Shown here: piece after piece, positions 946 to 47,071 of the stretch
How the letters are laid out: every line of letters starts with the position of its first letter
How positions within the stretch are numbered: the first letter of the stretch is position 1
Virus record (IMG/VR): IMGVR_UViG_3300046727_000129
Location: 1 to 47,071 of that record
Source: a virus
Reading direction: 5' to 3' (one strand)
Length of the DNA stretch: 47,071 bases
The notes under the pieces: model-generated
What the model saw: the letters and a program-made list of their open reading frames with translations, nothing else
What the model was told of the DNA's origin: nothing
Database searches by the model: none
Translations under genes and position numbers: made by a program

Positions 946-3900
946 CAGACCCTCGACGTCAGGATGGTGAACGACACGTCGCTCAGCGCCACATCCGGCG
1001 TGCCCGGCGCCACGATCTGCAGCACGTCGCCGATCGCCAGCGTGCCGCCGCTGCCAGCCAGCGTCGCGCTGGTGTGCGACGCGGTGGTCACCGTGATCGT
1101 GCCGATCGGGGTGATCGTGGTGCCGCCGCTGATCTGGTTGAGGATGAACGCCGCGTTCGCCTTGGTCTGCGTGCCGTCATAGATCTTGGTGCCTGCCAGC
1201 GACGCGGGCACCGTCAGCGACATCACCATAGGCACGTTGATCGCAGCGCTGGCCGCCGGTTGTCCCGCGAACGGGAACGCGATCGGCACGCTCTGCACCT
1301 CGGCAGGCAGCTGGGTGTAGGTCATCACGCCAGCGATCGCCGAAGCCGTCGGGGTGGATGTCAGAGTGCCGCTGGTGATCGTCAGCCCCGACAGCGCGGA
1401 CACCGTGCCGCCGTTCCACTGCACCGCAAGCGTGCCACTCGTGGTTATGGGACCGCCGGTAATGCCGGTGCCGCTGGTCGCCACCGAGGTGACCGAACCG
1501 CCAGATCCGGTCGCGGTCAGCGTGCCGCCGGTCGACAGCGTCAGACCGCTGCCGATCGCGATATCGCTCGGGACCGCCGCTGCGGTGCCGGGGTTGCCCA
1601 TGATCGTGCTGGCGGTGCGGGTGGCCAGGGCGACGGTGCCAGCGGTCGTGATGGTGCCGCCCGACAGGCCGGTGCCTGCGGTGATGGAGGTCACCGAACC
1701 ACCGCCAGCGGTCGACGCCAGGGTGCCACTGGTGAGCAACAGGCCCGACCCCACCGTCGTGACCGTGCCGCCGTTCCACTGCACGGCGAGGGTGCCAGCC
1801 GTGGTGATCGGACCACCCGTGATGCCCGGCCCGCTGGTCGCCACCGTGGTCACGCTGCCGCCGCTGCTGGTCGACGCCAGGGTGCCGCTGGTCAGAGATA
1901 GACCGGATCCAATGGCGGTGACCGAGCCGCCGTTCCAGGCCACGGCGAGCGTGCCGCTGGTGGTGATCGGGCCGCCCGTGATGCCGGTGCCGGTGGTGGC
2001 CACCGTGGTCACGCTGCCGACAGAGGTCGCCGTGAGCGTGCCGCTACTGAACGACAGGCCGGTGCCAATCGGCACTGCCGTTGGTGCCGCCGTCCCTGCC
2101 GTGCTGTTGGCGAGGATCGTCTTGCCAGCCTGTGTCGCCAGGGTGGGGTTGGGATAGTTGCCGCCGAGCGAGCCGCCCGCCTTGCCGGATGGTGGACCAC
2201 CGCTGGCCGATAGCGTGCCCGCCGTCAACACCATGCTGCCGCCGTCGATGGCGAACACCGTGCCCGCATTCCACTGAACGGAAAGAGTTCCGGCTCCAGT
2301 GATTGGGCCGCCGGTAATGCCGGGGCTCGTGGTCGAAACCTTGGTGACGGTGCCGGTGCCCGCCAGCGGCACGCCAAGCACGGTGGGTGTCGAGGAAAAG
2401 TCGGTGACGCCGGTATCCGAGATCGACAGCGCGGTGATGCTGCCGGTGATGTATTGCCACGCTGCCTTGCTGCTGTTGTAGCGCGTGGTGCGGACGTTCT
2501 GGTGCGCGTCCGTTAGGTCGCCGCTCCAGTCGATCGGCTGGTTGGCCGCGAGCCGGATCGCCGCGTCCTTGACCCCGGCATCAGCGAGCGTGGCACCGGA
2601 GAACTCAAGGATCGCGTCGTAGAACGGCCCGACAGCATAGAGCGCGGTGCCGAACGATGCTGTACTGCCGCCGACAACCGAGATCGCGCGGCTCATCTGC
2701 ATCGCCACGGTAGTGCCGAACGCCCATGTCACGCCGCCGTCGCCGACGGTGCCAGCCGAAGTCGGCCATGTCGGCTCAGTGGTGCCGGATGTACCTGGAG
2801 CGGTGCAGACGTAGGTGAAGCCGTTCCCCACCGTTGGCTGCATCGCCGTGCCAACGGTGTAGGCGTGCGACGGCTGCCACGGGTGCAGGATGGTGCCGTT
2901 GCTGGTCTGCCATGTGACGCCGCTATCCACCACCGTGCCGCCGCCATCGGTCGGCCATGTCGGCTCGGTGGATCCCGATGTGCCTGGGGCGATACAGACA
3001 TAGGTGAGGTTGTTAGCTACCGTCGGTACGATGATGACACCCAGCGCGTAGCTGTGCGTTGGTTGCCAGTTGTTCTGCATCTGCGTCGGTCCAGGGTTCA
3101 GCACGAGGAACGTGCGGGCGCCGCCGCCGGGGGCGTAACCCGTCGATGCGGCCTCTGGCCCGTTGGCTTGGAACTGCAGATTGAGCCCGTAGTCGAGTTG
3201 ACCGCTGACCGGCGGCAGCCCGCTGTAGTCGGTGACGTTTCCTATCGCGAGTTGGGTCGCAGTGGCAGCCGCATCGCTACGCGATGACGTGATGGTTGCC
3301 GCGCTGGTTATACCTTTCGCGCCATACGCCATGTTGGCACTGGCACGAAACGCACTCGCCAGCCCGCCATATCCAGGGTTGCGGTTGTTGACGCTCGTTT
3401 CAAGCGTAGCGAAGCCATTGGCCGAGCTTAGTAGTTGCTTGCGAAACGACACCCGGCCGTAGTTGCTCACGGTGACATCGCCGTCGCCCAGCACAGAAAC
3501 CGGCGTCGTGCCCGTGCTGAAGGTATCGCCGTCCAGCTTCCAGAGCACCGGATTGGCACCACCGGTCAGCGTGGCGCCAGTGACGTTGACGCCGCCGCGC
3601 GGCACCCAGATCGATGCCCCGCCAGGGCCCGCTGACGCTGCTGTGTAGGCCGCCATGAACGCCGCCGCGTCGTTGGTGGTGCCATCCAGCTTGGCACCGT
3701 AGTCGCGGACATTGATCTGATCGTTGGCGCGATCAGCGATGGTCCGCAGCGTCGTCGTGGTGGTTGCGGCGTAGGGCGCGATGGCTGGGTTCGGGTACGT
3801 TCCGCTCAGGCCGCCGCCAGCCGGGCCGATCGGCAGCGCCGACGTCACCACCGTGCCGCTCGACGCGGACGTCAGGCGCCCCTTGGTGTCCACCGTGAAG

Positions 3901-4904
3901 CTGGCGTTGGTGTAGTTACCAGCGGTGACCGTCGTCGCCTTCAGCGTCGGGTTGGGATACGTGCCGGTGAGATCACCGCCCGCCGCACCGGTCGGTGTCG
4001 TGCTGCCGTTGGCGGCGGCGGTAACGCGCCCGTTGCTGTCGACCGTGACGTTGGCGTTGGTGTAGGCGCCCGCTATGACCGCTGTGGTGACCAGGGTTGG
4101 GTTGGGGTAGTTCCCCGTCAGATCGCCCCCGGCAGGCCCCGCAGGCGTCCCAGGCGGCGCTGTGAGGCCGCTCACGGCATCGGTGATGCGGCCGTCGTCG
4201 CCGATCGTCACCGTGGCGATGGTATAGGTGCCAGGGCGCACGCCGCTGTTGGCGATCGCCGGGTTCGGATACGACCCCGTCAGCGAGCCGCCCGCCGCCC
4301 CGGTGGGTGCCCCCGGCGGGATCGCTACCTGCGCATCGACATACTGCTTGGTGGCGACATCGAACGCGTTGACCGGATCTGCCGCGACTGTCGCGGTGCC
4401 GCTGCCGGTGACGCGGAAGCCGTTCGGCAGCACCAGCTGGCCGGTGGCGTGCTCGATCTCGGCCGCATAGCCGACGGTGTCCTGATTGCCGGTGATATCA
4501 AAGCGGCTGATGGTGAAGTTGCCAGCCACCGACGTATCCGGCATCGAGATCTGCCAGAACTTCAAACCGTCCTGAGACCCCGCGAGGGTGTTGGCGAAAC
4601 CAGCCGTGCTTTCGAGGTTGAGCGTGGCGTCGGTGTTGGGCGAGCTGATACCGAGCGGCCCCGGCAGGATCGTGCCGCCGCTCAGCGGCAGCACCTGCAC
4701 CCAGCTCGCGTTGACACGGCCCCAGACGTTGCCGTCCTGCGGTGCCTCGCCGATGCTGCCTACCAGCGCCTGGATGTCCTGCAGCGACATCTGCCGCGTG
4801 TGCGGTATCTGGCCCTGCTGCCACATCGCCAGCGTGTCATCGAGCTGCGGATCAACCGCACCCGGCAGATCGCCGATGGTTTCGGTGAGGAGTGTCGTGC
4901 TCAT
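945..4904 (-). CDS. Large tail-fibre/tailspike protein with tandem repeats
   Basis: A 1319-residue virion protein. It contains many GGDLTGxYPNPTL segments typical of phage fibre shafts. In the middle is a pectate-lyase-type beta-helix entry ([19 protein letters not shown]). Two near-identical segments of the type WQPxHxYxxGxxxxPTV...TYVCxAPGTSG...TEPTWP follow. The C-terminal part holds about five copies of a roughly 50-residue repeat with the core [19 protein letters not shown]. Start ATG overlaps the upstream stop as ATGA. Likely trimeric fibre that binds, and perhaps degrades, host surface polysaccharide. The enzymatic role is inferred only from the beta-helix entry motif. Confidence 0.88.
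1380..2360 (-). repeat. Tandem coding repeats in the tail fibre
   Basis: About five imperfect copies of a roughly 150-bp coding repeat, each carrying the ITGGPIT...GTLAV...WNGG block. They can be followed on the plus strand through recurring gtgatcgggccgcc-like segments. Such repeats usually expand or contract by recombination and change fibre length. Confidence 0.7.
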
Positions 4905-16611: not shown

Positions 16612-16833
16612 TCAATCAGGGCGTGTGAGCGGCGTGGTGTCGCCGCGCTGGGCCCATGATCCGCACCAGTCGTCGTCGCGCACGATCGGGTGCGAGCTGT
16701 ATGCCTTGATCTCGATGTTCAGCTTGCCCGGCAATGGGATGAGGAACGACGTCGGCGGATCGCGGTGGCAGTTGCGATCGCCGGATGGATCCTTCCGCGA
16801 GAACCGGCAGGTGGCGCACGCCTGATCCAGCAT
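16612..16833 (-). CDS. Small Cys-rich protein downstream of large terminase
   Basis: 73 residues from ATG at 16833. MLDQACATCRFSRKDPSGDRNCHRDPPTS gives a C-x2-C...C pattern suggestive of metal binding. The frame is open further upstream into the repeat array and a non-ATG start there cannot be excluded. It ends WCGSWAQRGD..., a Cys-Gly-x-Trp motif common in small phage zinc or Fe-S proteins. Function unknown. Confidence 0.65.
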   Translation of the reverse strand: MLDQACATCRFSRKDPSGDRNCHRDPPTSFLIPLPGKLNIEIKAYSSHPIVRDDDWCGSWAQRGDTTPLTRPD

Positions 16834-16873
16834 GCGCGCTGCGACATCACGCGGGACGATTAAAGATGATGAC

Positions 16874-17023
16874 AGACTCGCTCTCCTGTGGCGGCACTCT
16901 CGCTTGAACTGGCTCGCTTCTGTGGCTTGGTATCCTCCAGCAGCACGGCTCGCTCTGGATTGACGGTACTCTCCCGTGGCGTGGCTCGCTCATCTACAAC
17001 GGCACTCTCTGCGAAGGCGGCTA
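16874..17023 (-). repeat. Alternating 18-bp repeat array, copy 1 (after large terminase)
   Basis: Eight 18-bp units on strict register plus a terminal CGGCTA. Plus-strand consensus alternates YGGCTCGCTC-N8 and CGGYACTCTC-N8. On the minus strand the array opens TAGCCG-N8-GAGAGTGCCG, and that TAG (17023-17021) is the stop codon of the terminase gene. One unit (about 16928) is degenerate (TGGTATCCTC). The array fills the whole gap to the next gene. Confidence 0.9.
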
Positions 17024-18532
17024 GTAGCCCGTCGTTCGACTACGCGTGCGATCCTGCACCAAGCGAGAGTTCAGCTCAATCATCTCGTTGTCGACCTGAT
17101 CGCCCTTCCACTGCAGGCTGGGGCCGAACAGCCGCGTCGCGGTGTATTGCAGCGCATCAGCCGGGTGCGAATACGAATTCTTCTCGGGCTTCTCGGCCCA
17201 TCGCTCGTTGCCCGCCATCTGAATGCGGCGGTAGTGGTAGCCACCCATCAGCGCCCGTCGCAACCGCGCGCAGCGGGGGTGCAGGTTGAACGCCGGGCGG
17301 CCGTCGTCATCGAACTGGCGCAGCGGTTTGCGCACCGCCTCCTGGCGGATCTGCGGCGACTGCATCCCCGGCTCGATGTTGATGCCTTTGTTGTGCAGGA
17401 TACCGAAGCAGGTGCGCTCATCGGTCTCGGCGCGGCTGTCGCCAGCCGGGTCGCCCACGTCAACGAACTCGCTGTCGGGGAAGTATTGCGTCGAGTGTGA
17501 CAGCACCCGGTCGCTGAACCGGTCGATGCCCATGCTATCGGCGCACAGCTCGTCAACCACCTTCCACTGGCCACTTGCTGCGAGCTGGCTGAACACCACC
17601 GCAGGCGTCAGCCCGAAGTCCCAGCCGCGATGCACCGGCAGTCTGGGATCGGTCTTCGGCGCCCGCTTCTCGTCGGCGCTGCCTGGGCAATGGATGTTGT
17701 CGTGGTATTCGGGGAACACCGGCTTGCCCTCGGTGACGAAACCATATTCGCCCTTGCAATAAACCCGGATCCATTCATCGGTCTTGCCGATCGCGAGGCG
17801 CTGCCAGTAGCCGGGGCTCTGGTTGCTCTTGTTCTCGGCGTTGGGGCTCAGCCCCGAGGGTTGCTTGAAGATGCGGGCATAGCGATCGACCGTCATGCCG
17901 GGGATGAACTGCGCCAGCTGCTCGACCGCCTCGGTGTGGTCCATCTGCTCGAAGAACTTGTACCACGACGAATCGGTGTCGGGCGGGTTGGTGTCCATGA
18001 TGATGCCCGCCCACGTCGCGCCGCCGTCGCGCTTGGCGGGGTAGCGATCGACACGGCCTTGCAGCGCATCAATGATCGTCCAAGGCACCTCCCTGGCTTC
18101 GTTCACCCAGGCGCCGGTCAGGTCGAGCGACAGTAGATTGCGCACATGGTCGGGCCGGTCGAGGGCGCGGAACAGCAGCTCGATTTCCGCGCATTTCTTG
18201 TCGCCGTGCGCGATCAGCCGGTTCAGCAGATACTCGTGCTCGGTGCTGCGCCAGATCCCCATCATGGGATACGGGAACCATTGGTGGACGGTCCTGATCG
18301 TGGTGTCGTTCAGTTGTCTATACGTATTGCGGATGATCGCCCAACGGCTGCGCCGGATGCCGTCCGGTCCTGGTGTCTGCTTGAGGCTGCGGTTAACGAT
18401 ATCCCACAGACATCCGGAACTCTTTGCGCTACCGAACGGACCCATCAGCCCCCGGATGAACGCGTCATCGTGCAGGAACGCGTGGATCGTGGGGATATCT
18501 GCTGTGTTAAAGTCGAGACTCGGGCGCGGCAT
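17021..18532 (-). CDS. terL: Terminase large subunit
   Basis: 503 residues. Walker A-type GPFGSAKSS at residues 31-39. A Walker B-like segment follows (LLSLDLTGAWVNEAREV, around residues 134-150). The C-terminal nuclease region contains HRGWDFGLTPAVVFSQ and EFVDVGDPAGDSRAETDERTCF. Packages phage DNA into the prohead using ATP. Start overlaps the upstream stop (TGATG). It ends on TAG, the first bases of the repeat array. Confidence 0.92.
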   Translation of the reverse strand: MPRPSLDFNTADIPTIHAFLHDDAFIRGLMGPFGSAKSSGCLWDIVNRSLKQTPGPDGIRRSRWAIIRNTYRQLNDTTIRTVHQWFPYPMMGIWRSTEHEYLLNRLIAHGDKKCAEIELLFRALDRPDHVRNLLSLDLTGAWVNEAREVPWTIIDALQGRVDRYPAKRDGGATWAGIIMDTNPPDTDSSWYKFFEQMDHTEAVEQLAQFIPGMTVDRYARIFKQPSGLSPNAENKSNQSPGYWQRLAIGKTDEWIRVYCKGEYGFVTEGKPVFPEYHDNIHCPGSADEKRAPKTDPRLPVHRGWDFGLTPAVVFSQLAASGQWKVVDELCADSMGIDRFSDRVLSHSTQYFPDSEFVDVGDPAGDSRAETDERTCFGILHNKGINIEPGMQSPQIRQEAVRKPLRQFDDDGRPAFNLHPRCARLRRALMGGYHYRRIQMAGNERWAEKPEKNSYSHPADALQYTATRLFGPSLQWKGDQVDNEMIELNSRLVQDRTRSRTTGY

Positions 18533-18738
18533 CAGTCATCCTTGTAGCCCTCCTGGAGCGGCTCGGGGAGCATGCTCTCATGCTCCGCCGTCCACGGCTC
18601 AGGCGGCTTCCCGCCATAGTCCATGAAGATATAATTCTCCCGCGTCGGCTCGATGCCCTTCTTCAGCATGTAGTCCAACGTCCCGTTGGTGCCGCGATAC
18701 GGTTCCCAGTCAATCTTAGTCTTCGGCGTCGTCGCCAT
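18532..18738 (-). CDS. Small hypothetical protein before terminase
   Basis: 68 residues (MATTPKTKIDWEPYRGTNGTLDYMLKK...), hydrophilic, ending LQEGYKDD. Strong GGAGGAG site upstream of the ATG. It overlaps the previous gene by 23 bases and is coupled to the terminase by TGATG. Function unknown. Confidence 0.7.
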   Translation of the reverse strand: MATTPKTKIDWEPYRGTNGTLDYMLKKGIEPTRENYIFMDYGGKPPEPWTAEHESMLPEPLQEGYKDD

Positions 18739-20746
18739 GATCCACTCCTCCTGCCCAACTGGGCAGTTTTAACCCGCCCGCATGAGTAAGGATAGCCTCT
18801 CGTCTCTCATCTGGCGTTTTTCCACGATGCGCGCCCTTGTTGCGCCACATATCGGCGATCTCACGCACGAAGCCAGGGTTGCGCTTCTGCTCAGGACTGA
18901 AGATGCCCCGGATGCCTTCCCAGGTCACTGACTGCAGCTCGCGCGGCAGGATCCCCAGATCCTTGGCGGCCTGCCGGTAGGCCTCGGCATACAGGCCATA
19001 CATGCCCTTGTTGCCCAGCGTCATGCTGTTGCCAGCCTGCGGCAGCTTCACCGCGCCCTCCTCCTTGGACTGCTTCGGGTTGGTGCCCAGCCCGTGGGCG
19101 ACCTCCATGGCGCTGGCACCGAGCGGTCGCAGCAACGCGGCGGCGATCGCGTGGGTGTCGATCGTGACGTCGTGACCGTGATGCGGCGCGATGATGTTGT
19201 TGAAGAAATTGCGCACCTTGTGGGCCTTGCCCATCAGCCGCGAGACCTCGGGCAGATCGGCGTTCTGCAGCGCCGCCATGGCCTTCTGGATCTCGCTGAA
19301 GCTGCCCCAGGTGACGTCGCGCGGCCTCGATGCCTCCTTCAGCTTACCCTTCTTGGTGTACTTCGCCGGGATCATTGCGGTGTCGCCCATCTCGCCTTCG
19401 GGCGTCACCATCTTGTAGGAGCGCGGGGTGTGCGCTTCGTCGTGCCAACGCGCGAACACCGCACGCTCATAGGGGTCGGTCAGCTCCGACATCGGCGTAC
19501 CGTGGAACTTCTGCTGCAGCTCCCGCAGCTCGCCGATATTCTCCTCCGGGTTCTCCCCCTTGCGGGTCTTGGGATTGGCAGCGGCTTTCTCCAACGAGGC
19601 GATGTACTTGTCGGAGTAGTTCTTCATCTCCTCCGTCATCGTCCAGTTGTTGCCCAGCTTGTGGGCAGTGAACGCGCGGCGGGCCAGATCGACGTTCTGA
19701 TACCAATCCTTCTGCGGGCTCAGCGATGCCAGCACCGCCGCCGCCTGATATGGCTGGACACCGAATTCCTTGGCCAGATCATGCGCGATCTTGTTGGCAC
19801 CGCTGTACCAGCGCTTGGCGCGCTCGACGATGCCAGGACCGATCGGTCCGTTCTTGTCGTTCATCTTGCGATAGAGCCAGACCAGATTGTCCTTGGCGTG
19901 CCTGATGAAGGCCTCATTGATCTGGTCGGGATTGTCAGTGCGCAAATGAGCGAACCCCGGATAATGCTGCTTGATGATCGCGGCGTTCTTGGCCTTCTGG
20001 TCGGTCGCCGCGTTCATGCTGTTCATATCGATCGACAGACCAGACGTCGCATGCGCGTCGATACCAGCCTTCTTCTGCGCAGGCTCGGACGGGATGCGGG
20101 TCGAGATGCGGTTGTGCGACTGGCTGTCGACCGCCGGGTCAGCGCCTGCGGCCGACGGCGGCGCGATCACGCCCTGCGCGTCCTCGGGTGCCAGCGGACG
20201 GCCACCGGCCTGCGCCAGGGCGGCGCTGCCACCACCGCCACCAGCGAACGTCGGGACGCTGCCCATGGTCTGTGCCGCGAGCCGCTGCGCCACGGCGCCA
20301 CGCTGGCGAACGAGGCCGCCGCTGGTGGGATCCTGGGCAAACTGCGTCAGATCATGCGGACCACCATCCCCTGGCGCGCCGGGCGCCATCCCAGGCGCTG
20401 CAGCGCGCAGCATGGCCGCCCCCTGCGGTCCAGGCATCATCGAGAGCGCGGGTGGTGGTGATGGCGCCGCCATCGGCGGTGCGGGCGGCGGTGGAGCCGG
20501 TGGCGGCGCGGCCAGCGGCGACGGGGGCGGCGCCAGCTGCGTCGGCGTCATCCCCTGCGCACCCATCTGCGTCATGTGCTGCGCGATCCTCGGGTCGATC
20601 GGCGGGATCGGCGGCGGCGCCGGGGGCGCGAACATCTGGTGCGTCAGCTGGCCCAGCGGGTTGAGCTGGTCCTTATACTTCTGCAACGGATTGGTGTCGT
20701 CCTCTGGCCGGTTGAGCTGCGGATAGGGGATCGTGCCAAGTGCCAT
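18716..20746 (-). CDS. Large internal/ejection-type virion protein with DUF7178-like domain
   Basis: 676 residues. The N-terminus (MALGTIPYPQL) resembles that of the upstream neighbour (ALGTIGYPTL). Residues about 20-130 are Pro/Ala-rich. From about 245 onward there is a helical globular domain with FAHLRTDNPDQI, PYQAAAVLASLSPQKDWYQN, HDVTIDTHAIAAALLRPLG and MYGLYAEAYRQAAKDLGILPRE. This set recalls a phage domain I know as DUF7178; enzymatic activity is not established. Position between terminase and the ADP-ribosyltransferase-like protein suggests a virion protein ejected with DNA. Confidence 0.75.
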   Translation of the reverse strand: MALGTIPYPQLNRPEDDTNPLQKYKDQLNPLGQLTHQMFAPPAPPPIPPIDPRIAQHMTQMGAQGMTPTQLAPPPSPLAAPPPAPPPPAPPMAAPSPPPALSMMPGPQGAAMLRAAAPGMAPGAPGDGGPHDLTQFAQDPTSGGLVRQRGAVAQRLAAQTMGSVPTFAGGGGGSAALAQAGGRPLAPEDAQGVIAPPSAAGADPAVDSQSHNRISTRIPSEPAQKKAGIDAHATSGLSIDMNSMNAATDQKAKNAAIIKQHYPGFAHLRTDNPDQINEAFIRHAKDNLVWLYRKMNDKNGPIGPGIVERAKRWYSGANKIAHDLAKEFGVQPYQAAAVLASLSPQKDWYQNVDLARRAFTAHKLGNNWTMTEEMKNYSDKYIASLEKAAANPKTRKGENPEENIGELRELQQKFHGTPMSELTDPYERAVFARWHDEAHTPRSYKMVTPEGEMGDTAMIPAKYTKKGKLKEASRPRDVTWGSFSEIQKAMAALQNADLPEVSRLMGKAHKVRNFFNNIIAPHHGHDVTIDTHAIAAALLRPLGASAMEVAHGLGTNPKQSKEEGAVKLPQAGNSMTLGNKGMYGLYAEAYRQAAKDLGILPRELQSVTWEGIRGIFSPEQKRNPGFVREIADMWRNKGAHRGKTPDERREAILTHAGGLKLPSWAGGVDHGDDAED

Positions 20747-22623
20747 CAGCCTGTCGCCTTATGATCGCGCAACGCATCGGCACCCGCATCCACCATCGCT
20801 GGCAGGCCGTTACGCTTCACGATGTTGATCGTTCTTGGATCGAACACAACGTAGTTGTGCGTACGATGGTGGGCTTCGAGATGGGCTTGCGCCTCTTCTT
20901 TCGTGTTGAATGTGGCGAGAGGAAAATTATTGTTCCTATGGAACACAGCCCATGCTCTTTTGCCGTCACCCGTAGTGTAGGGACCAACATCTGTTAACCG
21001 GCTGTCTTGATCCACATACTTGATGCCAGGAATACCAGCGTTCAGCAGTTTCTCTGCAGCTATCGGCCTGCGCGTCTTGTCGCCTCCGGTCAGATAGTCG
21101 TGCAGCATCTGACCGGTCATCTTGCTGCCGATCGAGGCGGATGGAGCGAGAGGGATAGCCCTGCTCTGCACATACGGGTGCTGCTGCCCGATGGGATGGT
21201 CCCAGTGCAGCATATGATCCTGGTCGATGTGCAGCTCGGCTTCGTAGAGGTGGCCAGGGTTATGCGTGAAATCCTCTAGCTTCAGTCTCTGTACCGCGTC
21301 CGCTATGCCAGCAGAGCGATGTCCCGCTTCCTGCCATGACTGCCAGACGTGGCTCTGGGGCTTGCTGAACGCATTCGCCGCCTCTTGCTCATGCGTCTGT
21401 CGTACATGCTCGATCGCCTGCTGGGGCGCCATGCCGTGCTCGTGGATCGTATCAAGCACCTCTCTGGCCGCATTGTAATCGTGGCCACTGAGGCCCATGG
21501 GATCTGACTGGCCCTTATATTTCGCGCCCTCGGCTAGGTTCTTCCGGTATGCCTCACCCGTCCCCCTGGCGCCACCGGTATAGGCGCCGTGGCCATACAT
21601 CTGGCCGCCTTCGCCGCTGCTCATCTTGCTGAGATCGAACTCGCCCAACTGATTGACGCGCGTCGGTTTGAATTCGTGCTGCGTGCCGTGCCACACCGTC
21701 TGAGGATCCGACATCCTGATCAGCTGGCCGCTGCCGTAGCTCTCCGGGCCGGGCGCTGCTGGCACGTTGCCGCGCGCTGCGACGTGCGCCAGGGCGGCGT
21801 GCTGCGCTGCCGTGCCCTCGTCATAGTCGCTGACCGTGCGGCCGTCACCAGGGTTGTAGGCGCCTGCCTGCGGGTCATGCGCCATGAACACCACGTCAGG
21901 CCTGCCGCCCTTGAACTGCTTGAACGCGTCGTGGTTCCAGCCCTCGGGCTTGTAGTCCTCGTTCCACGGCAGCCGCGCCACGGTGCGGAACCCGTTCTGC
22001 GCGTAGATGTGCGGCAGCACGGTATCAAACGCATCGAGCCGCCTGCCGCCCTCCTGCTTGGCGAGATCCAGCATCGATCGGGTGACGTTACGGTATGGCG
22101 CCTTCGGATGTTTGAACACCGAGACGATGTCGTCGCCCTTCAGGGCGAACCCGGCGTCGCCTTCCTTGGTCTGGAACAGCCGCATCTTGCGGTAGTCCTC
22201 GGCCGGATACTGGGTGACGGCAGCACCGGCCGGGTGACCGTGCTTGGCCTCGGCGATCGCGGCGTGGAACGCGTGCGCGCCCTCGGGGTGAAGCTCATGG
22301 TAGTCGGGATTGTCGGCGTTGTGGTAGCTGCGGTTGGCGCTCCAGATGGTCTTGACCGGTGGGCCTAGACCCAGTGCCTCAGATGCTCCCGCGCTTCTTC
22401 CCGTGTAAGCCCCTGCTGCACCAGCTTGTCCACCAGCTCCTCCAGCAGCTTGTCCGCTTCGCGATGGATCTGCGGGGTGGACCGCTGGTAGCTGTGGGAC
22501 TGCTGGGCCAATTGACTGCTGCCCTTGGGTGGGTGGGCCACTGGATCCTCCAAACGACGATAGCGCCGACGGTCCGGGCGTCGGCAGGGTCGGATAACCA
22601 ATCGTGCCTAACGCACCGGACAT
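20746..22623 (-). CDS. Virion-type protein with GNAT-like and ADP-ribosyltransferase-like domains
   Basis: 625 residues. After a Pro/Gly/Ala-rich N-terminus, residues about 95-260 hold an acetyltransferase-like domain (MRLFQTKEGDAGFALKGDDIVSVF, LDAFDTVLPHIYAQNGFRTVARL, RPDVVFMAHD). Residues about 310-610 resemble phage ADP-ribosyltransferases: VWHGTQHEF, GEGGQMYGHGAYTGG, LYEAELHID...LHWDHPIGQQ, and a late YVVFDPRTINIVKRNG. Such proteins are thought to enter the host with DNA and modify host proteins. Codon use in 22365-22541 fits another frame better, so the N-terminal third may be partly mis-called. Confidence 0.8.
   Translation of the reverse strand: MSGALGTIGYPTLPTPGPSALSSFGGSSGPPTQGQQSIGPAVPQLPAVHPADPSRSGQAAGGAGGQAGAAGAYTGRSAGASEALGLGPPVKTIWSANRSYHNADNPDYHELHPEGAHAFHAAIAEAKHGHPAGAAVTQYPAEDYRKMRLFQTKEGDAGFALKGDDIVSVFKHPKAPYRNVTRSMLDLAKQEGGRRLDAFDTVLPHIYAQNGFRTVARLPWNEDYKPEGWNHDAFKQFKGGRPDVVFMAHDPQAGAYNPGDGRTVSDYDEGTAAQHAALAHVAARGNVPAAPGPESYGSGQLIRMSDPQTVWHGTQHEFKPTRVNQLGEFDLSKMSSGEGGQMYGHGAYTGGARGTGEAYRKNLAEGAKYKGQSDPMGLSGHDYNAAREVLDTIHEHGMAPQQAIEHVRQTHEQEAANAFSKPQSHVWQSWQEAGHRSAGIADAVQRLKLEDFTHNPGHLYEAELHIDQDHMLHWDHPIGQQHPYVQSRAIPLAPSASIGSKMTGQMLHDYLTGGDKTRRPIAAEKLLNAGIPGIKYVDQDSRLTDVGPYTTGDGKRAWAVFHRNNNFPLATFNTKEEAQAHLEAHHRTHNYVVFDPRTINIVKRNGLPAMVDAGADALRDHKATG
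22365..22541 (-). CDS. Embedded helical mini-protein, alternative frame
   Basis: 58 residues from GTG at 22541, with GGAGG five bases upstream, ending TAG at 22365. It includes READKLLEELVDKLVQQGLTREEAREHLRHW, a clean amphipathic helix. Third codon positions in this frame are mostly G/C, like other genes here; the host frame has many A/T there and reads only Gly/Ala. This points to real translation inside, or instead of, the N-terminus of the larger gene. Confidence 0.6.
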   Translation of the reverse strand: MAHPPKGSSQLAQQSHSYQRSTPQIHREADKLLEELVDKLVQQGLTREEAREHLRHWV

Positions 22624-22633
22624 GCTCTGGTTA

Positions 22634-22855
22634 TATCACACTCACACTTCTCGGCACTCTCAATTGCCGTGGTTAGCTCGTTCTTCTCGGCACTCTCTGA
22701 CCAATCGGCTCGCTCGTCTGGGTCGATACTCTCGGCTCGCTCGGCTCGCTCACTGTATACGGCACACTCGCCGGAAGCGGCTCGCTCGCGATGCTCGGCA
22801 CGCTCCGATGACAAGGCTCGCTCCACATAGTCGGCACTCTCAGGCATGTCGGCTA
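22634..22855 (-). repeat. Alternating 18-bp repeat array, copy 2 (after HhH gene)
   Basis: Twelve 18-bp units plus terminal CGGCTA, in register. On the minus strand it begins TAGCCG-N8-GAGAGTGCCG, the TAG being the stop codon of the helix-hairpin-helix gene (22855-22853). The two conserved versions alternate for most of the array, while the eight variable bases differ in every unit. The last units decay toward the start of the GNAT/ART gene. Confidence 0.92.
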
Positions 22856-24022
22856 ACGCTTGTTACGCTGCGCCCGCTGACGCGCCTCGTAAAGCTCCGG
22901 GAAGATCATGTCGACGTTCGGGATCTCCAGGCTATGCACATGCCCCGGCACATGATCCAGCACATACGGATGCGGCGGCAGCTTGCCATACTCGTGCCAA
23001 TACATCACCTCGTGCAGATGCGAGAGGAACACCTTGGTGGCGCGTCTGTGGCTACGCGCGTGTATACGAGCCGGTGGTAGCATGCCCTGGCTGTACCACT
23101 TGAACGCGTCGGTCTCCTTGCTGTAGCTCTTGGTCTCCAGCGCCAGCTTGGCCTGATCGGCATACAGTTGGCGCGAGTTACGCTCGGTCTCCCATTCCTT
23201 GCGCGCCTTGTAGAGCTGGCCATACAGGCTGTCGGGGCGGTTGCACACCTTCACGAAGCTCTCGCCGATCAGATAGCACAGCCGCTTCAGCGCGGCGTTC
23301 CACGGCCGCTTCTCGCCCTTACCCCAGACGCTGGTCGGGTCGAGCCCCGCGAAGCGCCAGATGTGCCCGACCGTCGGCGCCCGCCGGATGTCGATATGGG
23401 CCAGCAATCCTGCCGCGATCACCGGGCCGATGCCCTTGATGCTGCGGGCCCAGATCCCTGGCCGGTTGCTCAGGCTGTAGATGTTCAGCGTGCCCCGGAT
23501 CTGCACCTCCAGCGCATCCTCCTGGGTGAATAGCCATTCGAGCACGTCATACGGCTCGGGCACTCTCTCCTTCGGCGCCTCGCCATCGGCAGATTCAGGC
23601 GCCTTCTCGGTATCCTTCGGCTGCGCCAGGGTGGTGACCTGATGCCGCGTGCGGATGCGATTCTCCTGCATCGTGTAGTAGGCATCGGTGAGGAAGCGTG
23701 CTTCGGCGCGGCCGAGGGTGCGGCTGGCCTTCTTCAGATCCGCCGTCAGCTTCTGGATCGGCGTCAGCAGGCCGGGATCCATCGTGCCGGTCATCAGCTG
23801 GTGCAGCGCATCGAGCCGCTGGAACAGGCCCTTGGTCAGCTCCTGGCCACCACCGTTGGCACCGTGGCGCAGCAGATCGAGCGCGTCGGTCACCAGATCG
23901 AGCGGCTGCATCTCCAGGAAGTCCTCGGGGCCCAGCGGCTGCTCTGGCTCGACGTCGGGTGGGGGTGGTGGAGGCGCCTTGTTCCGGGCGCCTCTACCGG
24001 TCTTCTGGGTGGGTGGTTTCAC
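22853..24022 (-). CDS. Helix-hairpin-helix protein related to the IS110-type transposase C-terminal domain
   Basis: 389 residues from GTG at 24022, with AGGA five bases upstream; the open frame continues into the repeat array and was not used. The N-terminus is basic then Pro-rich. Residues about 205-270 carry RSIKGIGPVIAAGLLAHIDIRRAPTVGHIWRFAGL and NAALKRLCYLIGESFVKVCN, the arrangement of the Transposase_20 (IS116/IS110/IS902) C-terminal fold. No N-terminal RuvC-like DEDD domain is apparent, and no inverted repeats flank it. A phage DNA-binding or packaging role seems more likely than transposition. Repeat arrays lie on both sides. Confidence 0.78.
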   Translation of the reverse strand: MKPPTQKTGRGARNKAPPPPPPDVEPEQPLGPEDFLEMQPLDLVTDALDLLRHGANGGGQELTKGLFQRLDALHQLMTGTMDPGLLTPIQKLTADLKKASRTLGRAEARFLTDAYYTMQENRIRTRHQVTTLAQPKDTEKAPESADGEAPKERVPEPYDVLEWLFTQEDALEVQIRGTLNIYSLSNRPGIWARSIKGIGPVIAAGLLAHIDIRRAPTVGHIWRFAGLDPTSVWGKGEKRPWNAALKRLCYLIGESFVKVCNRPDSLYGQLYKARKEWETERNSRQLYADQAKLALETKSYSKETDAFKWYSQGMLPPARIHARSHRRATKVFLSHLHEVMYWHEYGKLPPHPYVLDHVPGHVHSLEIPNVDMIFPELYEARQRAQRNKR

Positions 24023-24027
24023 TGTGG

Positions 24028-24321
24028 TCCTCGCTCTCTGGTGGTCGGCACTCTCGCAGGCTGCGGCTCGCTCGCTTGTGTTGGTACTCTCACGGGGTAC
24101 GGCTCGCTCGCGTGCTCCGGTAATCTCAGCACTCGTGGCTCGCTTCCTTCTGACGGCACTCTCGTATTTCGCGGCTCGCTCTCGCTTCATGACACTCTCA
24201 CGCGCGCTGGCTCGCTCATCTCGGTTGGCACACTCAGCCACCCTGGCTCGCTCGGCATAGTCGGCACTCTCTTCTCGTGCGGCTCGCTCCCCTAGATCGG
24301 CACACTCGGCTTCCACGGCTG
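24028..24321 (-). repeat. Alternating 18-bp repeat array, copy 3 (longest)
   Basis: Fifteen good units (24046-24315) plus a decayed unit at 24028 that carries the ribosome site of the downstream HhH gene, and CGGCTG instead of CGGCTA at the far end. Alternation of the two conserved decamers is kept throughout. One frame is open across the entire array and would read ERAxxxESAxxx hexapeptides, but the variable bases do not look protein-selected. Confidence 0.92.
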
Positions 24322-24378
24322 GAAGACATCTAGGGGACTACCACGGCGAGCAGGGGAAGCGCAAGAAAGCTTCTTTTC

Positions 24379-24576
24379 CTAGTCAGGTCTCCTAGTTTGC
24401 CAATAATCCAGAGGTTGGACAGCCAGGGCAGGCACAGGCATCGAGGCAAGCAGGACAGCGTGGCCGGGCGGCATCACAGGGCGTGGCCCAGCGCACACCA
24501 CGCTCTCGCGCCTGCCGCTGGGCCACTGTAGATACAGACGCCACTGCATGTGCTGCGGCGCCACGCTCTCATCCAT
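24379..24576 (-). CDS. Small hypothetical protein
   Basis: 65 residues from ATG at 24576 (MDESVAPQHMQWRLYLQWPS), ending WQTRRPD. Codon third positions are G/C-rich as in real neighbours. No ribosome site stronger than GAGCG is seen, and the start lies within a short repeat array. A 57-bp spacer separates it from array 3. Function unknown; may be a chance frame. Confidence 0.45.
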   Translation of the reverse strand: MDESVAPQHMQWRLYLQWPSGRRESVVCAGPRPVMPPGHAVLLASMPVPALAVQPLDYWQTRRPD

Positions 24577-24613
24577 CGGCACGCTCAATCGGCACGCTCT
24601 GAAAGCCCGGCTA
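24562..24613 (-). repeat. Short degenerate repeat array, copy 4
   Basis: On the minus strand it opens TAGCCG-N8-GAGCGTGCCG, the TAG (24613-24611) being the stop of the 77-residue gene. The next units have slipped out of 18-bp register (GAGCGTGCCG follows after 3 rather than 8 bases). It looks like a deleted or nascent array. Confidence 0.7.
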
Positions 24614-24844
24614 CAGCTTACCGCATGGGTGCGCCATCGGGTCGCCGCAGTGGTGGGCATAGCCGCCATCGTTGTGCTGCGCCAGCAGCTTTGCCACATC
24701 GCGCACCTTGGCCATCAGCCGCGCACTACTCCGGGGCGGAGCTGGCTGGCGGCCCAGCGGCATCGGCGCCCCCTGGTAGGGATCCTCCGAGCCCGCTCCC
24801 CCCATCATCGCCTTCGGCACCATCCCGGTGTTGATCACTCCCAT
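24611..24844 (-). CDS. Small hypothetical protein with C-terminal Cys/His cluster
   Basis: 77 residues (MGVINTGMVPKAMMGG...), with a helical RSSARLMAKVRDVAKLLAQHND segment and a C-terminus AHHCGDPMAHPCGKL rich in His and Cys. Ends on TAG followed directly by repeat array 4. It overlaps the previous gene by about 120 bases in another frame. Function unknown. Confidence 0.6.
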   Translation of the reverse strand: MGVINTGMVPKAMMGGAGSEDPYQGAPMPLGRQPAPPRSSARLMAKVRDVAKLLAQHNDGGYAHHCGDPMAHPCGKL

Positions 24845-24947
24845 CGCCCATCTCCCGTGAGAACCGCTTGCGCTTGTGCCTGCCGTGCGCCGTCGGCCCC
24901 TCGCCGAACGCCGTGTCGCTGTCCGGGAACGCCTGGGTGTCGCTCAC
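24726..24947 (-). CDS. Small basic protein overlapping its neighbour
   Basis: 73 residues from a GTG that overlaps the upstream stop (GTGA). The first 35 residues (MSDTQAFPDSDTAFGEGPTAHGRHKRKRFSRE) look genuine. The rest is Gly/Asp/Ala-rich and lies over the next gene in another frame, as also seen at the portal 3' end. Confidence 0.5.
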   Translation of the reverse strand: MSDTQAFPDSDTAFGEGPTAHGRHKRKRFSREMGDGSDQHRDGAEGDDGGSGLGGSLPGGADAAGPPASSAPE

Positions 24948-25459
24948 GCTTCCCGCGCCGCGTCTGCCTCGCTGATGAACCGGCCGTGCTCATCACGCGG
25001 CCGATCGTGCTCGGCGGCTGGGTCATCCCACCGCTCCGCGTTCTCAGCCGCCTCGGCCTCGGTCTCCCGTGCGTGGCGCGACACCAGCGCCTCGCCCTCG
25101 GGTGCGGTCATGAGCTCCAGTGCGAGCTCGTCAGCCTCGGCCGGGGTCAGGCCATACTCGGCCACCAGACAGGTCGCCACCTGCGGCCCCAGGCCATTAC
25201 GCGCCACGGCGAGGATGGTGCGGACCTTCACCTGGGCGGCGAGGTTGGGGCCGTCCATGTCGGCCACCTGCGACAGCAGCGCCATCACGTAGCCACCGTG
25301 CAGCTCGCAGATCTGCACCACCGGGCCCGGCTCCTCGATCGCCAGCTCGCGAGCCGCCTGTTCGCGTGCGGCGCGTTCGTCGTCAGTCTCGTTGTGCGGC
25401 GTCAGCTCGGCTCGCTGCTCGGCGACTCGCTCTTCGGCCCGCTCTTCGGCGTAGGACAT
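24944..25459 (-). CDS. Hypothetical acidic helical protein
   Basis: 171 residues from ATG at 25459, with GGAGG upstream; the frame is open further but lacks a start signal. The N-terminus MSYAEERAEERVAEQRAEL is a charged helix whose codons echo the GAGCGAGCC repeat. The middle (VVQICELHGGYVMALLSQVADM...ILAVARNGLGPQVATCLVAEYGLTPAEADELALEL) is a folded helical region. The tail is charged. No known family. Confidence 0.7.
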   Translation of the reverse strand: MSYAEERAEERVAEQRAELTPHNETDDERAAREQAARELAIEEPGPVVQICELHGGYVMALLSQVADMDGPNLAAQVKVRTILAVARNGLGPQVATCLVAEYGLTPAEADELALELMTAPEGEALVSRHARETEAEAAENAERWDDPAAEHDRPRDEHGRFISEADAAREA

Positions 25460-25611
25460 TGGGTTGCCTCCTCTGGTGGCCACTCGATCCAGCCGTTGCC
25501 CTGGCAGATCCAGCACTCCTCGCGTGACAACGGCGTCGACACGCCCAGGCGCACGATAGCATAGCCGCGTCCATTGCACGCTGGACAGATCACCGGGCCA
25601 GCGTCAGTCAT
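25402..25611 (-). CDS. DnaJ-type zinc-finger mini-protein
   Basis: 69 residues from ATG at 25611, sharing TGATG with the gene upstream. CPACNGRGYAI and CWICQGNGWIEW give two CxxCxGxG motifs 19 residues apart, the pattern of the DnaJ central zinc region. The C-terminal tail overlaps the next gene. Possible nucleic-acid or protein-binding adaptor. Confidence 0.72.
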   Translation of the reverse strand: MTDAGPVICPACNGRGYAIVRLGVSTPLSREECWICQGNGWIEWPPEEATQCPTPKSGPKSESPSSEPS

Positions 25612-25772
25612 CAGAACCGCGTCCGATGCCAGCCCGTGACCGCACCGCAGACCACGCAGCGGGCACCGATCCACACATGGTTGTCACGCATCTCGCTGAC
25701 CACCTCGATCGGCTGCCAGTGCAGCCAGTGCTGGATGTGGTGCAGCTTGCGCCGGATCAGCCAGCGGATCAT
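25611..25772 (-). CDS. Small CxxC protein
   Basis: 53 residues (MIRWLIRRKLHHIQHWLHWQPIEVVSEMRDNHV...). Basic, Trp/His-rich amphipathic start, then RCVVCGAVTGWHRTRF. TGATG coupling at both ends supports translation. Function unknown. Confidence 0.68.
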   Translation of the reverse strand: MIRWLIRRKLHHIQHWLHWQPIEVVSEMRDNHVWIGARCVVCGAVTGWHRTRF

Positions 25773-25870
25773 CAGTCAAACTCCTGGGTATCCCTGATCA
25801 TCAGCCCAACCACGATAAGGCAGGCTGCCACAGCGATCGCCAGAACACCCACGACGATCCAGAACAGCAT
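25772..25870 (-). CDS. Single-span membrane micro-protein, 32 residues
   Basis: MLFWIVVGVLAIAVAACLIV begins one transmembrane helix, and the short tail is RDTQEFD. Coupled by TGATG both up- and downstream. Function unknown; could modulate membrane or lysis functions. Confidence 0.68.
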   Translation of the reverse strand: MLFWIVVGVLAIAVAACLIVVGLMIRDTQEFD

Positions 25871-26160
25871 CAGCGCCGCTGTCGGGACGCTACGGCCGGG
25901 TGCTGCGCCAGCTTGTCCTCGGGCTGCTCCTGGCTGGCCAGATAGTTCGGCGCGTAGTCCTGCTTGAACGCCGGGTGGTCGGCCGAGCTGGCGGTGGGCG
26001 CCTTGTCGGTATTGTGGATCACTACCAGATCGCGCCACGCCTCGTAGGGCAGGTGCTCGGGCCAGCCCGCCTGCTGCGCCGCCCACAGATGATGCCCAGG
26101 CTGTTCGATGTGAGGGTAGCCGAGCCCATAACGCGGGGGCTCGGCTCGCTCTGGGTTCAC
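25870..26160 (-). CDS. Hypothetical protein starting inside a repeat array
   Basis: 96 residues from GTG at 26160 (MNPERAEPPRYGLGYPHIEQPGHHLW). The GAGAG of the last repeat units, four bases upstream, would serve as ribosome site, so the array runs into the coding start. The body (AWRDLVVIHNTDKAPTASSADHPAFKQDY) is hydrophilic. No family recognised. Confidence 0.62.
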   Translation of the reverse strand: MNPERAEPPRYGLGYPHIEQPGHHLWAAQQAGWPEHLPYEAWRDLVVIHNTDKAPTASSADHPAFKQDYAPNYLASQEQPEDKLAQHPAVASRQRR

Positions 26161-26399
26161 GGTACTCTCTAGCGCTTCGGCGCGCTCAAGTACGTTGGCA
26201 CTCTCGCCGTTCGTGGCTCGCTCAGATAGTTCGGCACTCTCCTGCGACCCGGCTCGCTCTGTCTTCGCGGTACGCTCCTGCGCTGGGGCTCGCTCGGCGT
26301 TCGTGGTGCTCTCAGGATCTTCGGCTCGCTCTGCCATTTCGGTACCCTCACGAGGGTCGGCTCGCTCATCAACTTCGGCACTCTCATGCAGCTCGGCTA
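26142..26399 (-). repeat. Alternating 18-bp repeat array, copy 5
   Basis: Fourteen units in exact register plus terminal CGGCTA. On the minus strand it begins TAGCCG-N8-GAGAGTGCCG with TAG being the stop of the HiPIP-like gene (26399-26397). Two-state alternation is unbroken. The final units provide the start region of the next gene. Confidence 0.92.
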
Positions 26400-37016: not shown

Positions 37017-38503
37017 GCGAGCCCCTCACCCTGCGCGACTACCAGACCGCCGACATCGAGCGCATCCGCGACGCGTTCCGGGGCGGCGCCAAGGCGCCCC
37101 TCTACCAGCTCTCGACCGGCGGCGGGAAGACGGTCGTCTTCGCCCACGTGATCAAGTCCGCCGTGGCCAAGGGCACCCGCACCCTGGTGCTCGCCCACCG
37201 CCGCGAGCTGATCAAGCAAGCCTCCAACAAGCTGACCGCGCTCGGTGTGCCGCACGGCATCATCGCCGCCGGGCAGGACCGCGACCACGACGCGCAGGTG
37301 ATCGTGGCCTCCATCCAGACCGTCGCCCGCCGCCTCGACACCCTGCCCCAGTTCCAGCTGATCGTGATCGACGAAGCGCACCACGCCGTGGCCTCGACCT
37401 GGGCCAAGCTGCTCGCCAGCCAGCCCGACGCGCGCCTGCTCGGTGTCACCGCGACACCCGCCCGGCTGGACGGCAAGGGCCTCGGCAAGCACTGCGGCGG
37501 ATCGTTCGACGCCATCGTGTGCGGCCCCGCCATGCAGGATCTGGTCGACCAGGGCTACCTCGCGCCGTGCAAGGTGTTCATCCCCTCCGCCACCATCAAC
37601 ACCACCGGCCTGCGCACCATCGCCGGGGACTATGACGAGCACGAGCTGGCCGAGCGTGCCAGCGGCGTGACCGGCGACGCGGTGAAAGAGTTCCAGGCGC
37701 TGCCCGAGGGCACCACCGGCATGGCGTTCTGCGTCACCGTGGCGCACGCCGAGGCGGTCGCTGCGGCGTTCCAGGACGCTGGCTACCGCGCCACCGCCGT
37801 CCACGGCGGCCTGGACAAGGCCAGCCGCGACGATGCCATCCAGGGGCTCCAGGACGGCCGCACGCAGGTGCTCACCAGCTGCGAGATCATCTCCGAGGGG
37901 CTCGACGTCCCGTCGGTGGGCTGCGTGATCCTGCTGCGCCCCACCCAGAGCCTGACGATGTGCCTGCAGCAGATCGGCCGGGGCATGCGCCCGAAGGCGG
38001 ACGGCGGCCATCTGACGGTGCTCGACCACGCCCGCAACTGCGTCGCCCACGGCCTGCCCACCGAGCCGCGCGACTGGAGCCTCGATGGCGTAACGAAGAA
38101 GAACGACAAGGACAAGGCCGCACCCACCCCGTGGGACTGCATCAAGTGCGGCGTGCTGAACTCACCCACCCGGCCGACCTGCTCCAACTGCGGCGCGCTG
38201 AAGCCCTGGACGTGCAAGGAGTGCGGCACCCGCAACCGGGGTGAGCACAACCGCTGCATCGACTGCGGCGCCCAGCGCCCGACGCGGAAGCTGCTGGTGG
38301 CCGACAACGCGCCGATGCAGGAGCTGGTGTTCGACCAGTATGCCCACATCGCCCGGATGACGTACCGCCAGCTGCTCAGCAAGCCGCGCACCGAGGCGGA
38401 GCTGGCCGCCTACGCCAGGGCGCACAACTACAAATCCGGGTGGGTTTGGTGGAAGCTGAAGGAGCAGGAAGAGACGTTTCCGCAAAAGGAGAAACGCGCA
38501 TGA
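37013..38503 (+). CDS. SF2 DEAH-type DNA helicase with zinc ribbons
   Basis: 496 residues from GTG. Helicase motifs in order: QLSTGGGKT (Walker A, residues 32-40), LAHRRELIKQ, VIDEAHHAV (motif II, about 117), GVTATPARL, then C-terminal FCVTVAHAEAVA, SEGLDVPSVGCVILLRPT and CLQQIGRGMRP (motif VI). After the RecA domains come three CxxC pairs (CIKCG, CSNCG, CKECG...CIDCGAQRP), i.e. zinc ribbons. Likely unwinds DNA in phage replication or recombination. Confidence 0.93.
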   Translation: MSEPLTLRDYQTADIERIRDAFRGGAKAPLYQLSTGGGKTVVFAHVIKSAVAKGTRTLVLAHRRELIKQASNKLTALGVPHGIIAAGQDRDHDAQVIVASIQTVARRLDTLPQFQLIVIDEAHHAVASTWAKLLASQPDARLLGVTATPARLDGKGLGKHCGGSFDAIVCGPAMQDLVDQGYLAPCKVFIPSATINTTGLRTIAGDYDEHELAERASGVTGDAVKEFQALPEGTTGMAFCVTVAHAEAVAAAFQDAGYRATAVHGGLDKASRDDAIQGLQDGRTQVLTSCEIISEGLDVPSVGCVILLRPTQSLTMCLQQIGRGMRPKADGGHLTVLDHARNCVAHGLPTEPRDWSLDGVTKKNDKDKAAPTPWDCIKCGVLNSPTRPTCSNCGALKPWTCKECGTRNRGEHNRCIDCGAQRPTRKLLVADNAPMQELVFDQYAHIARMTYRQLLSKPRTEAELAAYARAHNYKSGWVWWKLKEQEETFPQKEKRA

Positions 38504-47029: not shown

Positions 47030-47071
47030 TCGCTCACGATATTCGGCACTCTCGGCGCAAGCGGCTTAGCA
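47030..47071 (-). repeat. Alternating 18-bp repeat array, copy 6 (edge)
   Basis: TCGCTC-N8-CGGCACTCTC-N8-CGGCTTAGCA on the plus strand. On the minus strand it starts TGCTAAGCCG, so a stop codon (TAA) may again open the array, for a minus-strand gene lying beyond the edge. Confidence 0.7.

What the first reader, a model, noticed from the sequence alone, without database searches (positions are those of the whole stretch)
16874..26399. A two-state 18-bp repeat array anchored on stop codons
Sequence shows four arrays of 8, 12, 15-16 and 14 units, plus a short degenerate one and one at the right edge. Each unit is a conserved decamer and eight variable bases. Two decamer versions alternate (minus strand GAGCGAGCCG and GAGAGTGCCG), giving a 36-bp super-period. 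Four arrays open exactly TAGCCG-N8-GAGNGTGCCG, and that TAG is the upstream gene's stop codon (terminase, HhH, 77-residue and HiPIP-like genes). Arrays fill spacers in an otherwise overlap-coupled gene string. They are not CRISPR (unit too short), not a simple tandem repeat (spacers all differ), and the decamers are not self-complementary. Inference: a nucleic-acid-level element, e.g. a binding array, RNA spacer or ribosome standby tract. I know of no described counterpart.
Basis: partly seen in the sequence, partly recalled or inferred. Interest (0 to 1): 0.92.

Follow-up and report, generated by a model that had tools for sequence, protein, structure and literature searches.

The report
Phage TIGR guide-RNA arrays with TasA
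The odd repeats are arrays of tiny guide RNAs of the TIGR-Tas type (described in 2025), encoded by a soil phage next to their partner protein, and a relative's guides point at a gene that other phages need to package their DNA.

Summary
In the coding sense the two decamers are the edge repeat GAGCGAGCCR and the loop repeat GAGAGYRCCR, with 8-nt spacers and a 36-nt unit. The gene between two of the arrays (22853-24022) is a nuclease-less Tas protein (TasA). Its profile matches TasR (E 1e-25) and TasH structures, and its model's best PDB folds are all TasH/TasR-tigRNA complexes. Over 250 arrays occur in related viral contigs, and tas is present in 16 of 17 contigs examined almost in full. Arrays begin and end with half edge repeats, which defines exactly a 36-nt RNA. 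Its two ends covary by base pairing (odds 537), far more than within one decamer. Spacers A and B join into natural-looking DNA only as A+rc(B), the published dual-strand target geometry. One guide, present in two phages in opposite spacer order, matches 104 viral contigs exactly, about 99 of them at one conserved site of the terminase large-subunit gene. The case is a new member of a known kind. Silencing of competing phages is inferred.

The parts
22853..24022 (-). tasA: Nop-domain Tas protein, 389 aa, no nuclease domain found; ~85-aa N-terminal extension
   Evidence: Pfam Transposase_20 only; phmmer to TasR 9mty E=9.4e-11; profile A1 to TasR 1e-25 and TasH 2e-14; model pLDDT 85, top 11 PDB folds all TasH/TasR-tigRNA complexes
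16879..17022 (-). TIGR array W1 (4 tigRNA units) between the terminase stop TAG (17021-17023) and the next gene; one loop repeat degenerate (sense GAGGATACCA)
22639..22854 (-). TIGR array W2 (6 units), starts on the tasA stop codon TAG (22853-22855)
24031..24320 (-). TIGR array W3 (8 units), ends in a 3'-truncated edge GAGCGAG that runs into the GAGGA ribosome site and GTG start of tasA
26142..26398 (-). TIGR array W4 (7 units), starts on a stop codon TAG; L074 (97% identical flanks) has more units and a different order
24559..24612 (-). short degenerate array behind the 77-residue ORF (stop TAG)
47031..47066 (-). single complete 36-nt tigRNA unit AGCCG-CTTGCGCC-GAGAGTGCCG-AATATCGT-GAGCG at the contig edge
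   Evidence: sequence
17021..18532 (-). terminase large subunit gene upstream of W1 (context)
   Evidence: tblastn to annotated TerL genes, e.g. 43% identity; Pfam Terminase_3 only below cut-off, E=0.005

Best explanation
The arrays are dual-repeat TIGR arrays serving the phage's own TasA protein. Transcribed in gene direction, the array RNA would be cut in the middle of each edge repeat (GAGCG^AGCCR) into 36-nt tigRNAs: AGCCR-spacerA(8)-GAGAGYRCCR-spacerB(8)-GAGCG. A TasA dimer holds the edge and loop repeats through their box C/D-like bases. Spacer A pairs with one strand and spacer B with the other of one 16-bp site whose sequence is A+rc(B). Lacking a nuclease, TasA would block rather than cut the site, probably in genes of competing phages. 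Shown here: array anatomy, the Tas partner, end-to-end pairing of the 36-nt unit, the A+rc(B) geometry (statistically), modular turnover of 36-bp units. Supported but not proven: a natural target at a conserved terminase site. Inferred: transcription, processing, binding, silencing. The confidence given is for membership and guide function; silencing of competitors alone I put at 0.4-0.5.
For: Same architecture as published: two alternating 8-12-nt repeats, ~9-nt spacers, 36-nt units, truncated edge repeats at both ends, Nop-domain gene adjacent (PMC12045711). The tas gene is the dominant array neighbour (70 arrays upstream, 50 downstream) and is present in 16 of 17 contigs examined almost in full. 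Homology and fold to TasR/TasH. 5'-truncated edge in 108 of 136 arrays (background 2.6%) and 3'-truncated edge in 55 of 79 (background 2%). Upstream-edge base 7 covaries with downstream-edge base 4: A-U in 34 of 36, odds 537, p=6e-44, versus odds 6-7 within one decamer. Junction A+rc(B) z=+4.7; every other layout, cross-edge pair or trim lies between -2.7 and +2.0. 16-mer near-matches at 3 mismatches 22,918 versus 21,489-22,000 in 8 permutations. Spacers are co-inherited within a unit more than across an edge, Fisher p=6e-4. Target TGGTGCACCCGCGCTG: 104 exact viral hits versus 23 for the rc(A)+B control, about 99 in terminase ORFs.
Against: No rho-independent terminator above chance near the window arrays, although the paper calls this typical. 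Box D would be AG rather than the UG of TasR. No target was identified for the three window guides scanned (8, 11 and 15 exact viral hits; the first two sets lie in unrelated contigs). No expression data. A few arrays run against both neighbouring genes.
Confidence: 0.93

Rival explanations
1. An IS110-family transposon: the protein is a bridge-RNA recombinase and the arrays are incidental repeats or transposon ends.
For: Pfam and PHROGs call the protein an IS110-type transposase; weak profile match to IS621 and ISCro4.
Against: No N-terminal DEDD domain was detected (Pfam finds only Transposase_20); closest solved relatives are TasR and TasH, not IS110; arrays of many 36-nt units lie up to 51 kb from the gene; a bridge RNA is a single structured RNA.
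Confidence: 0.03
2. A binding array for a DNA- or RNA-binding protein (operator, partition or replication site) in which only the decamers matter and the 8-mers are inert.
For: Decamers strongly conserved, 8-mers nearly all different.
Against: The 8-mers are not independent: they join as A+rc(B) only within a unit (z=4.7), are inherited in unit pairs, and recur swapped as a pair; the covariation spans 36 nt of the RNA strand.
Confidence: 0.02
3. A ribosome standby tract or mRNA spacer between genes.
For: Arrays lie between co-directional genes, run from stop codon to start region and contain GAG triplets.
Against: Arrays against both neighbours exist; pairing between halves of successive edge repeats and the A+rc(B) signal are unexplained.
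Confidence: 0.01
4. A translated hexapeptide repeat (plus strand G-S-L-xxx-G-T-L-xxx).
For: One plus-strand frame reads so; pyrimidine-ending codon-like bias before the Gly codon.
Against: Stops at chance level in that frame (166 observed, 168.8 expected) and frame-breaking 19- and 37-nt spacings.
Confidence: 0.002

Closest known systems
TIGR-TasA with dual-repeat arrays (Faure et al., Science 2025, PMC12045711)
   Same: Alternating edge and loop repeats, short spacers, 36-nt units, half-edge ends, solo Nop-domain Tas beside the array; the paper notes 10-nt repeats at TasA-TasParB loci
   Different: 8-nt spacers and repeats GAGCGAGCCR/GAGAGYRCCR; several arrays scattered through the genome, some far from tas; arrays start on stop codons of structural genes; no terminators seen; no ParB-like family hit in the neighbours tested
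TIGR-TasR (9MTY) and TIGR-TasH (9VZX, 21KL series)
   Same: Homologous Nop domain, dual-spacer guide geometry, pairing of the tigRNA ends through the edge halves
   Different: No RuvC or HNH nuclease domain detected in the window protein
IS110 recombinases with bridge RNA (IS621, ISCro4)
   Same: Distant homology of the RNA-binding domain
   Different: No DEDD domain, no transposon structure, guide arrays in place of one bridge RNA
VIPR (PMC13142463)
   Same: Phage-encoded guide RNA system proposed to act on competing phages
   Different: RAMP protein and 5-nt GGY/NN repeats; unrelated protein and guide code
CRISPR-Cas
   Same: Repeat-spacer array as guide store
   Different: Much shorter alternating repeats and split 8-nt guides; no cas genes noticed

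Membership tests
TIGR dual-repeat array | Two distinct alternating 8-12-nt repeats | tested here: met
   AB 1090, BA 1052, AA 61, BB 0; 10-nt repeats
TIGR dual-repeat array | Variable spacers of about 9 nt (8 nt in SpTIGR) in a 36-nt unit | tested here: met
   8-nt spacers, 2459 steps of 18; 36-nt unit from half-edge to half-edge
TIGR dual-repeat array | Begins with 5'-truncated and ends with 3'-truncated edge repeat | tested here: met
   108 of 136 and 55 of 79 arrays, background 2-3%
TIGR dual-repeat array | Rho-independent terminator after the array (described as typical) | tested here: not met
   Scan of 16-27 kb: 6 terminator-like sites, 5.7 expected, none at an array end on the sense strand; the paper calls it typical, not required
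TIGR dual-repeat array | Box motifs shared and covarying between edge and loop; extra edge base pair with covariation across the processed unit | tested here: met
   Base 10 covaries between edge and loop; base 7/base 4 pair across 36 nt, A-U 34 of 36
TIGR dual-repeat array | Spacer A and spacer B match opposite strands of one site | tested here: met
   Statistical: A+rc(B) junction z=4.7, other layouts not; exact terminase target
TIGR dual-repeat array | Transcribed, cut to 36-nt tigRNAs, bound by Tas | not testable with these tools
   Needs RNA sequencing and pull-down
Tas protein (Nop domain) | Sequence and fold homology to TasR/TasH | tested here: met
   E=1e-25 and 2e-14; Foldseek top 11 all TasH/TasR
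TasA subtype | No nuclease domain fused to the Nop domain | tested here: met
   Only Transposase_20 found; most relatives 262-290 aa; the ~85-aa N-terminal extension was not matched to any domain
IS110 transposase | N-terminal DEDD nuclease domain plus C-terminal Transposase_20 | tested here: not met
   Only the C-terminal model matches
CRISPR array | Repeats of about 25-36 nt and spacers of similar size | tested here: not met
   10-nt repeats, 8-nt spacers
VIPR | GGY/NN 5-nt repeats and RAMP protein | tested here: not met
   Repeat sequence and partner protein differ

The most novel reading that the evidence does not exclude
Phage TIGR-TasA is a weapon between phages: guides spread over several arrays in the genome silence essential genes of rivals without cutting, with conserved codons of the terminase large subunit as one natural target, and the same target is taken up in either orientation (spacers A and B swapped) by different phages.
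Probability: 0.4. Interest if true: 0.82.

Novelty: new member of a known kind. Interest (0 to 1): 0.55.

Why it matters
The founding paper leaves the natural targets, the biological role of nuclease-less TasA and the way arrays change as open questions. This lineage, easy to recognise by one nearly fixed pair of repeats in about a hundred environmental phage contigs, makes all three testable. It offers a candidate natural target (a conserved terminase site in diverse phages), sequence evidence for dual-strand targeting by natural guides, and close relatives whose arrays differ by whole 36-bp units.

Tried and rejected
Coding hypothesis: stops at chance level. RNA hairpins between spacers: no pairing signal in the mutual-information scan. 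Direct literature searches for the repeat letters and '18-bp repeat' found nothing useful. Rfam: no match in the window. Target search for window guides: exact 16-mers of three units gave 11, 8 and 15 viral hits; the first two sets lie in unrelated contigs and the third was not analysed for gene identity. Second swapped guide pair (L051/L090): only 10 hits, no common gene. Enrichment of guides on terminase in general: 8 against 3.6 expected at up to one mismatch, weak. The L111 guide that near-matches the window's terminase gave only 2 terminase hits among 49 with a degenerate pattern. Self-targeting: 19 near-matches against 19.9 expected, no bias. Alternative genetic code for the low-GC contig G002: not needed; it is just 39% GC. 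The same array in bacterial chromosomes: only three hits, in MAG contigs that may be phage.

Full report
OBSERVATION. The window is one IMG/VR virus record. The window holds 39 unit pairs at exactly +18 on the + strand against a mean of 0.07 (maximum 1) in shuffles. In the 119 sequences then held there are 257 arrays with 3513 units, strict A/B alternation and 2138 distinct spacers among 2459. In bacterial and archaeal genomes the longer pattern hit only three stretches, in two MAG contigs.

NOT PROTEIN, AND ORIENTED. In-frame stops occur at chance frequency. Arrays are intergenic (mean overlap with called genes 2.5%) and read GAGCGAGCCR-N8-GAGAGYRCCR in the direction of their neighbours in 168 of 171 cases where both neighbours run the same way. 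In 17 contigs examined almost in full, 63 arrays follow both neighbours and 9 oppose both. So the element is carried by the strand of the transcript, but a minority probably have their own transcription.

THE PARTNER GENE. Clustering of all neighbouring proteins gave one dominant family, present in 75 of 112 sources and directly upstream or downstream of arrays 70 and 50 times. In the window it is 22853-24022. Pfam sees only Transposase_20 (IS116/IS110/IS902) in it. Single-sequence search against the PDB gives 9MTY, the TasR structure (E=9.4e-11), and TasH (9.8e-6). A profile of 50 relatives gives 1e-25 and 2e-14, then IS621 (1e-4) and ISCro4 (0.002). The predicted structure (mean pLDDT 85) has as its eleven best PDB folds TasH and TasR complexes with tigRNA. 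By tblastn the gene is present in 16 of 17 contigs; in the seventeenth the only array touches the contig end.

IDENTITY. The TIGR-Tas paper (PMC12045711) describes arrays of two alternating 8-12-nt repeats (edge, loop), spacers of about 9 nt, units processed to 36-nt tigRNAs cut in the middle of the edge repeat, arrays that begin and end with truncated edge repeats, and a Nop-domain Tas protein, most often without nuclease (TasA). Each anatomical point was tested here. 108 of 136 arrays whose first full repeat is a loop carry a 5'-truncated edge one step upstream, and 55 of 79 that end in a loop carry a 3'-truncated edge one step downstream; background is 2-3%. The two halves are AGCCR and GAGCG, so the unit AGCCR-8-GAGAGYRCCR-8-GAGCG is exactly 36 nt. 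The right edge of the window holds one such unit on its own, 47031-47066.

PAIRING ACROSS THE UNIT. In the TasR structure the two edge halves of one processed tigRNA pair with each other, with covariation. Here, base 7 of the upstream edge and base 4 of the downstream edge are G-C in 1105 units, G-U in 34, A-U in 34 and A-C in 2; the odds ratio for A with U is 537 (p=6e-44). Inside one decamer, or across neighbouring units in the other direction, it is 6-7. Units are related by descent, so the p-value overstates independence, but the contrast between the two pairings is not explained by descent. Sequence alone therefore indicates that the functional RNA is the 36-nt piece between two half-edges.

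GUIDE GEOMETRY. If spacers A and B pair with opposite strands of one site, A+rc(B) should look like contiguous DNA. Using k-mer statistics of array-free phage DNA and permuting spacer partners within each contig, the A+rc(B) junction scores z=+4.7. rc(A)+B, A+B, B+A, both cross-edge pairings and all trimmed junctions score between -2.7 and +2.0. Near-matches of whole 16-mers agree: 22,918 at three mismatches against 21,489-22,000 in eight permutations. The signal is statistical and population-wide; it says that spacers derive from contiguous DNA of phage-like composition.

ARRAY TURNOVER. L074 has 97% identical flanks to window array W4 but more units. Shared spacers come in edge-A-loop-B pairs, with whole units inserted and one moved. 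Over 27 array pairs from different sources, a shared spacer brings its unit partner along in 24 of 41 cases, but its cross-edge neighbour in 12 of 52 (p=6e-4).

A NATURAL TARGET. Two guides occur in swapped A/B order in different phages (exact swaps: 2 observed, 0.05 expected). Swapped spacers specify the same site. For one of them (L092 TGGTGCAC/CAGCGCGG; L122 the reverse) the site TGGTGCACCCGCGCTG has 104 exact hits in IMG/VR. The same spacers in the rc(A)+B layout give 23, and four other guides 8, 10, 11 and 15. About 99 of the 104 lie in frame in one gene at the motif VHPRC. Two representatives are Terminase_3 plus Terminase_3C, the phage terminase large subunit. The 91 longer ORFs fall into 15 groups at 70% identity, so they are diverse phages. 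The 42-kb contig of L122 itself lacks the site even with one mismatch to a degenerate codon pattern. Because many guides were examined before this one, I treat it as a strong candidate, not proof; the other guides scanned gave no comparable hit.

MECHANISM. Shown: anatomy, partner protein, unit ends, guide geometry, modular turnover. Inferred from the published TasR/TasH biochemistry: transcription, processing by a host nuclease, binding by a TasA dimer, R-loop formation with one spacer on each strand. Inferred from the lack of a nuclease domain and from the terminase target: silencing of genes of competing phages. The paper names inter-element competition, integration aid and ParB-linked roles as possibilities; I favour competition, at roughly 40-50%.

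WHAT IS NEW. The kind is known. New points, as far as the library held here shows, are: arrays scattered along the genome, up to 51 kb from tas (the paper's search used 5 kb flanks); arrays starting on stop codons of structural genes; the natural-guide evidence for A+rc(B); unit-wise turnover; and a candidate natural target. Preprints and supplements outside the library could already hold some of this.

Noticed in passing
window 47031-47066: A single complete 36-nt tigRNA unit stands alone at the contig end, 23 kb from tasA, behind a convergent gene; exact target scan gave 15 scattered viral hits.
   Followed up: partly
window 22734-22741: One spacer of array W2 is itself a copy of the edge repeat (AGCGAGCC), apparently a short duplication.
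   Followed up: no
window 23552-23569: The tasA coding sequence contains a loop-like stretch (sense GAGAGTGCCCGAGCC); could be chance or a site of self-regulation.
   Followed up: no
window 23767-24022: The N-terminal ~85 residues of TasA (proline-rich start, then predicted helices) are absent from most relatives, which are 262-290 aa long.
   Followed up: partly
L139/L140 (G016 38103-38402), L144 (G021 16812-17163): A minority of arrays run against both neighbouring genes, so they probably have their own promoters.
   Followed up: no
L170-L174 (contig G002): A 39% GC contig carries the same GC-rich repeats and a tas gene, so the repeats are held constant while the genome composition changed.
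   Followed up: partly
L009-L126: Spacings one base too long (19 or 37) outnumber those one base too short (17 or 35) by 202 to 37; 9-nt spacers seem tolerated, 7-nt ones less so.
   Followed up: no
L127, L128, L129: The only bacterial-genome records with arrays are MAG contigs binned as Gemmatimonadetes and Candidatus Solibacter; possible host hints or binned phage.
   Followed up: no
window 1710-2019: A 159-bp tandem repeat (1.9 copies) lies inside the 1319-codon gene at 945-4904.
   Followed up: no
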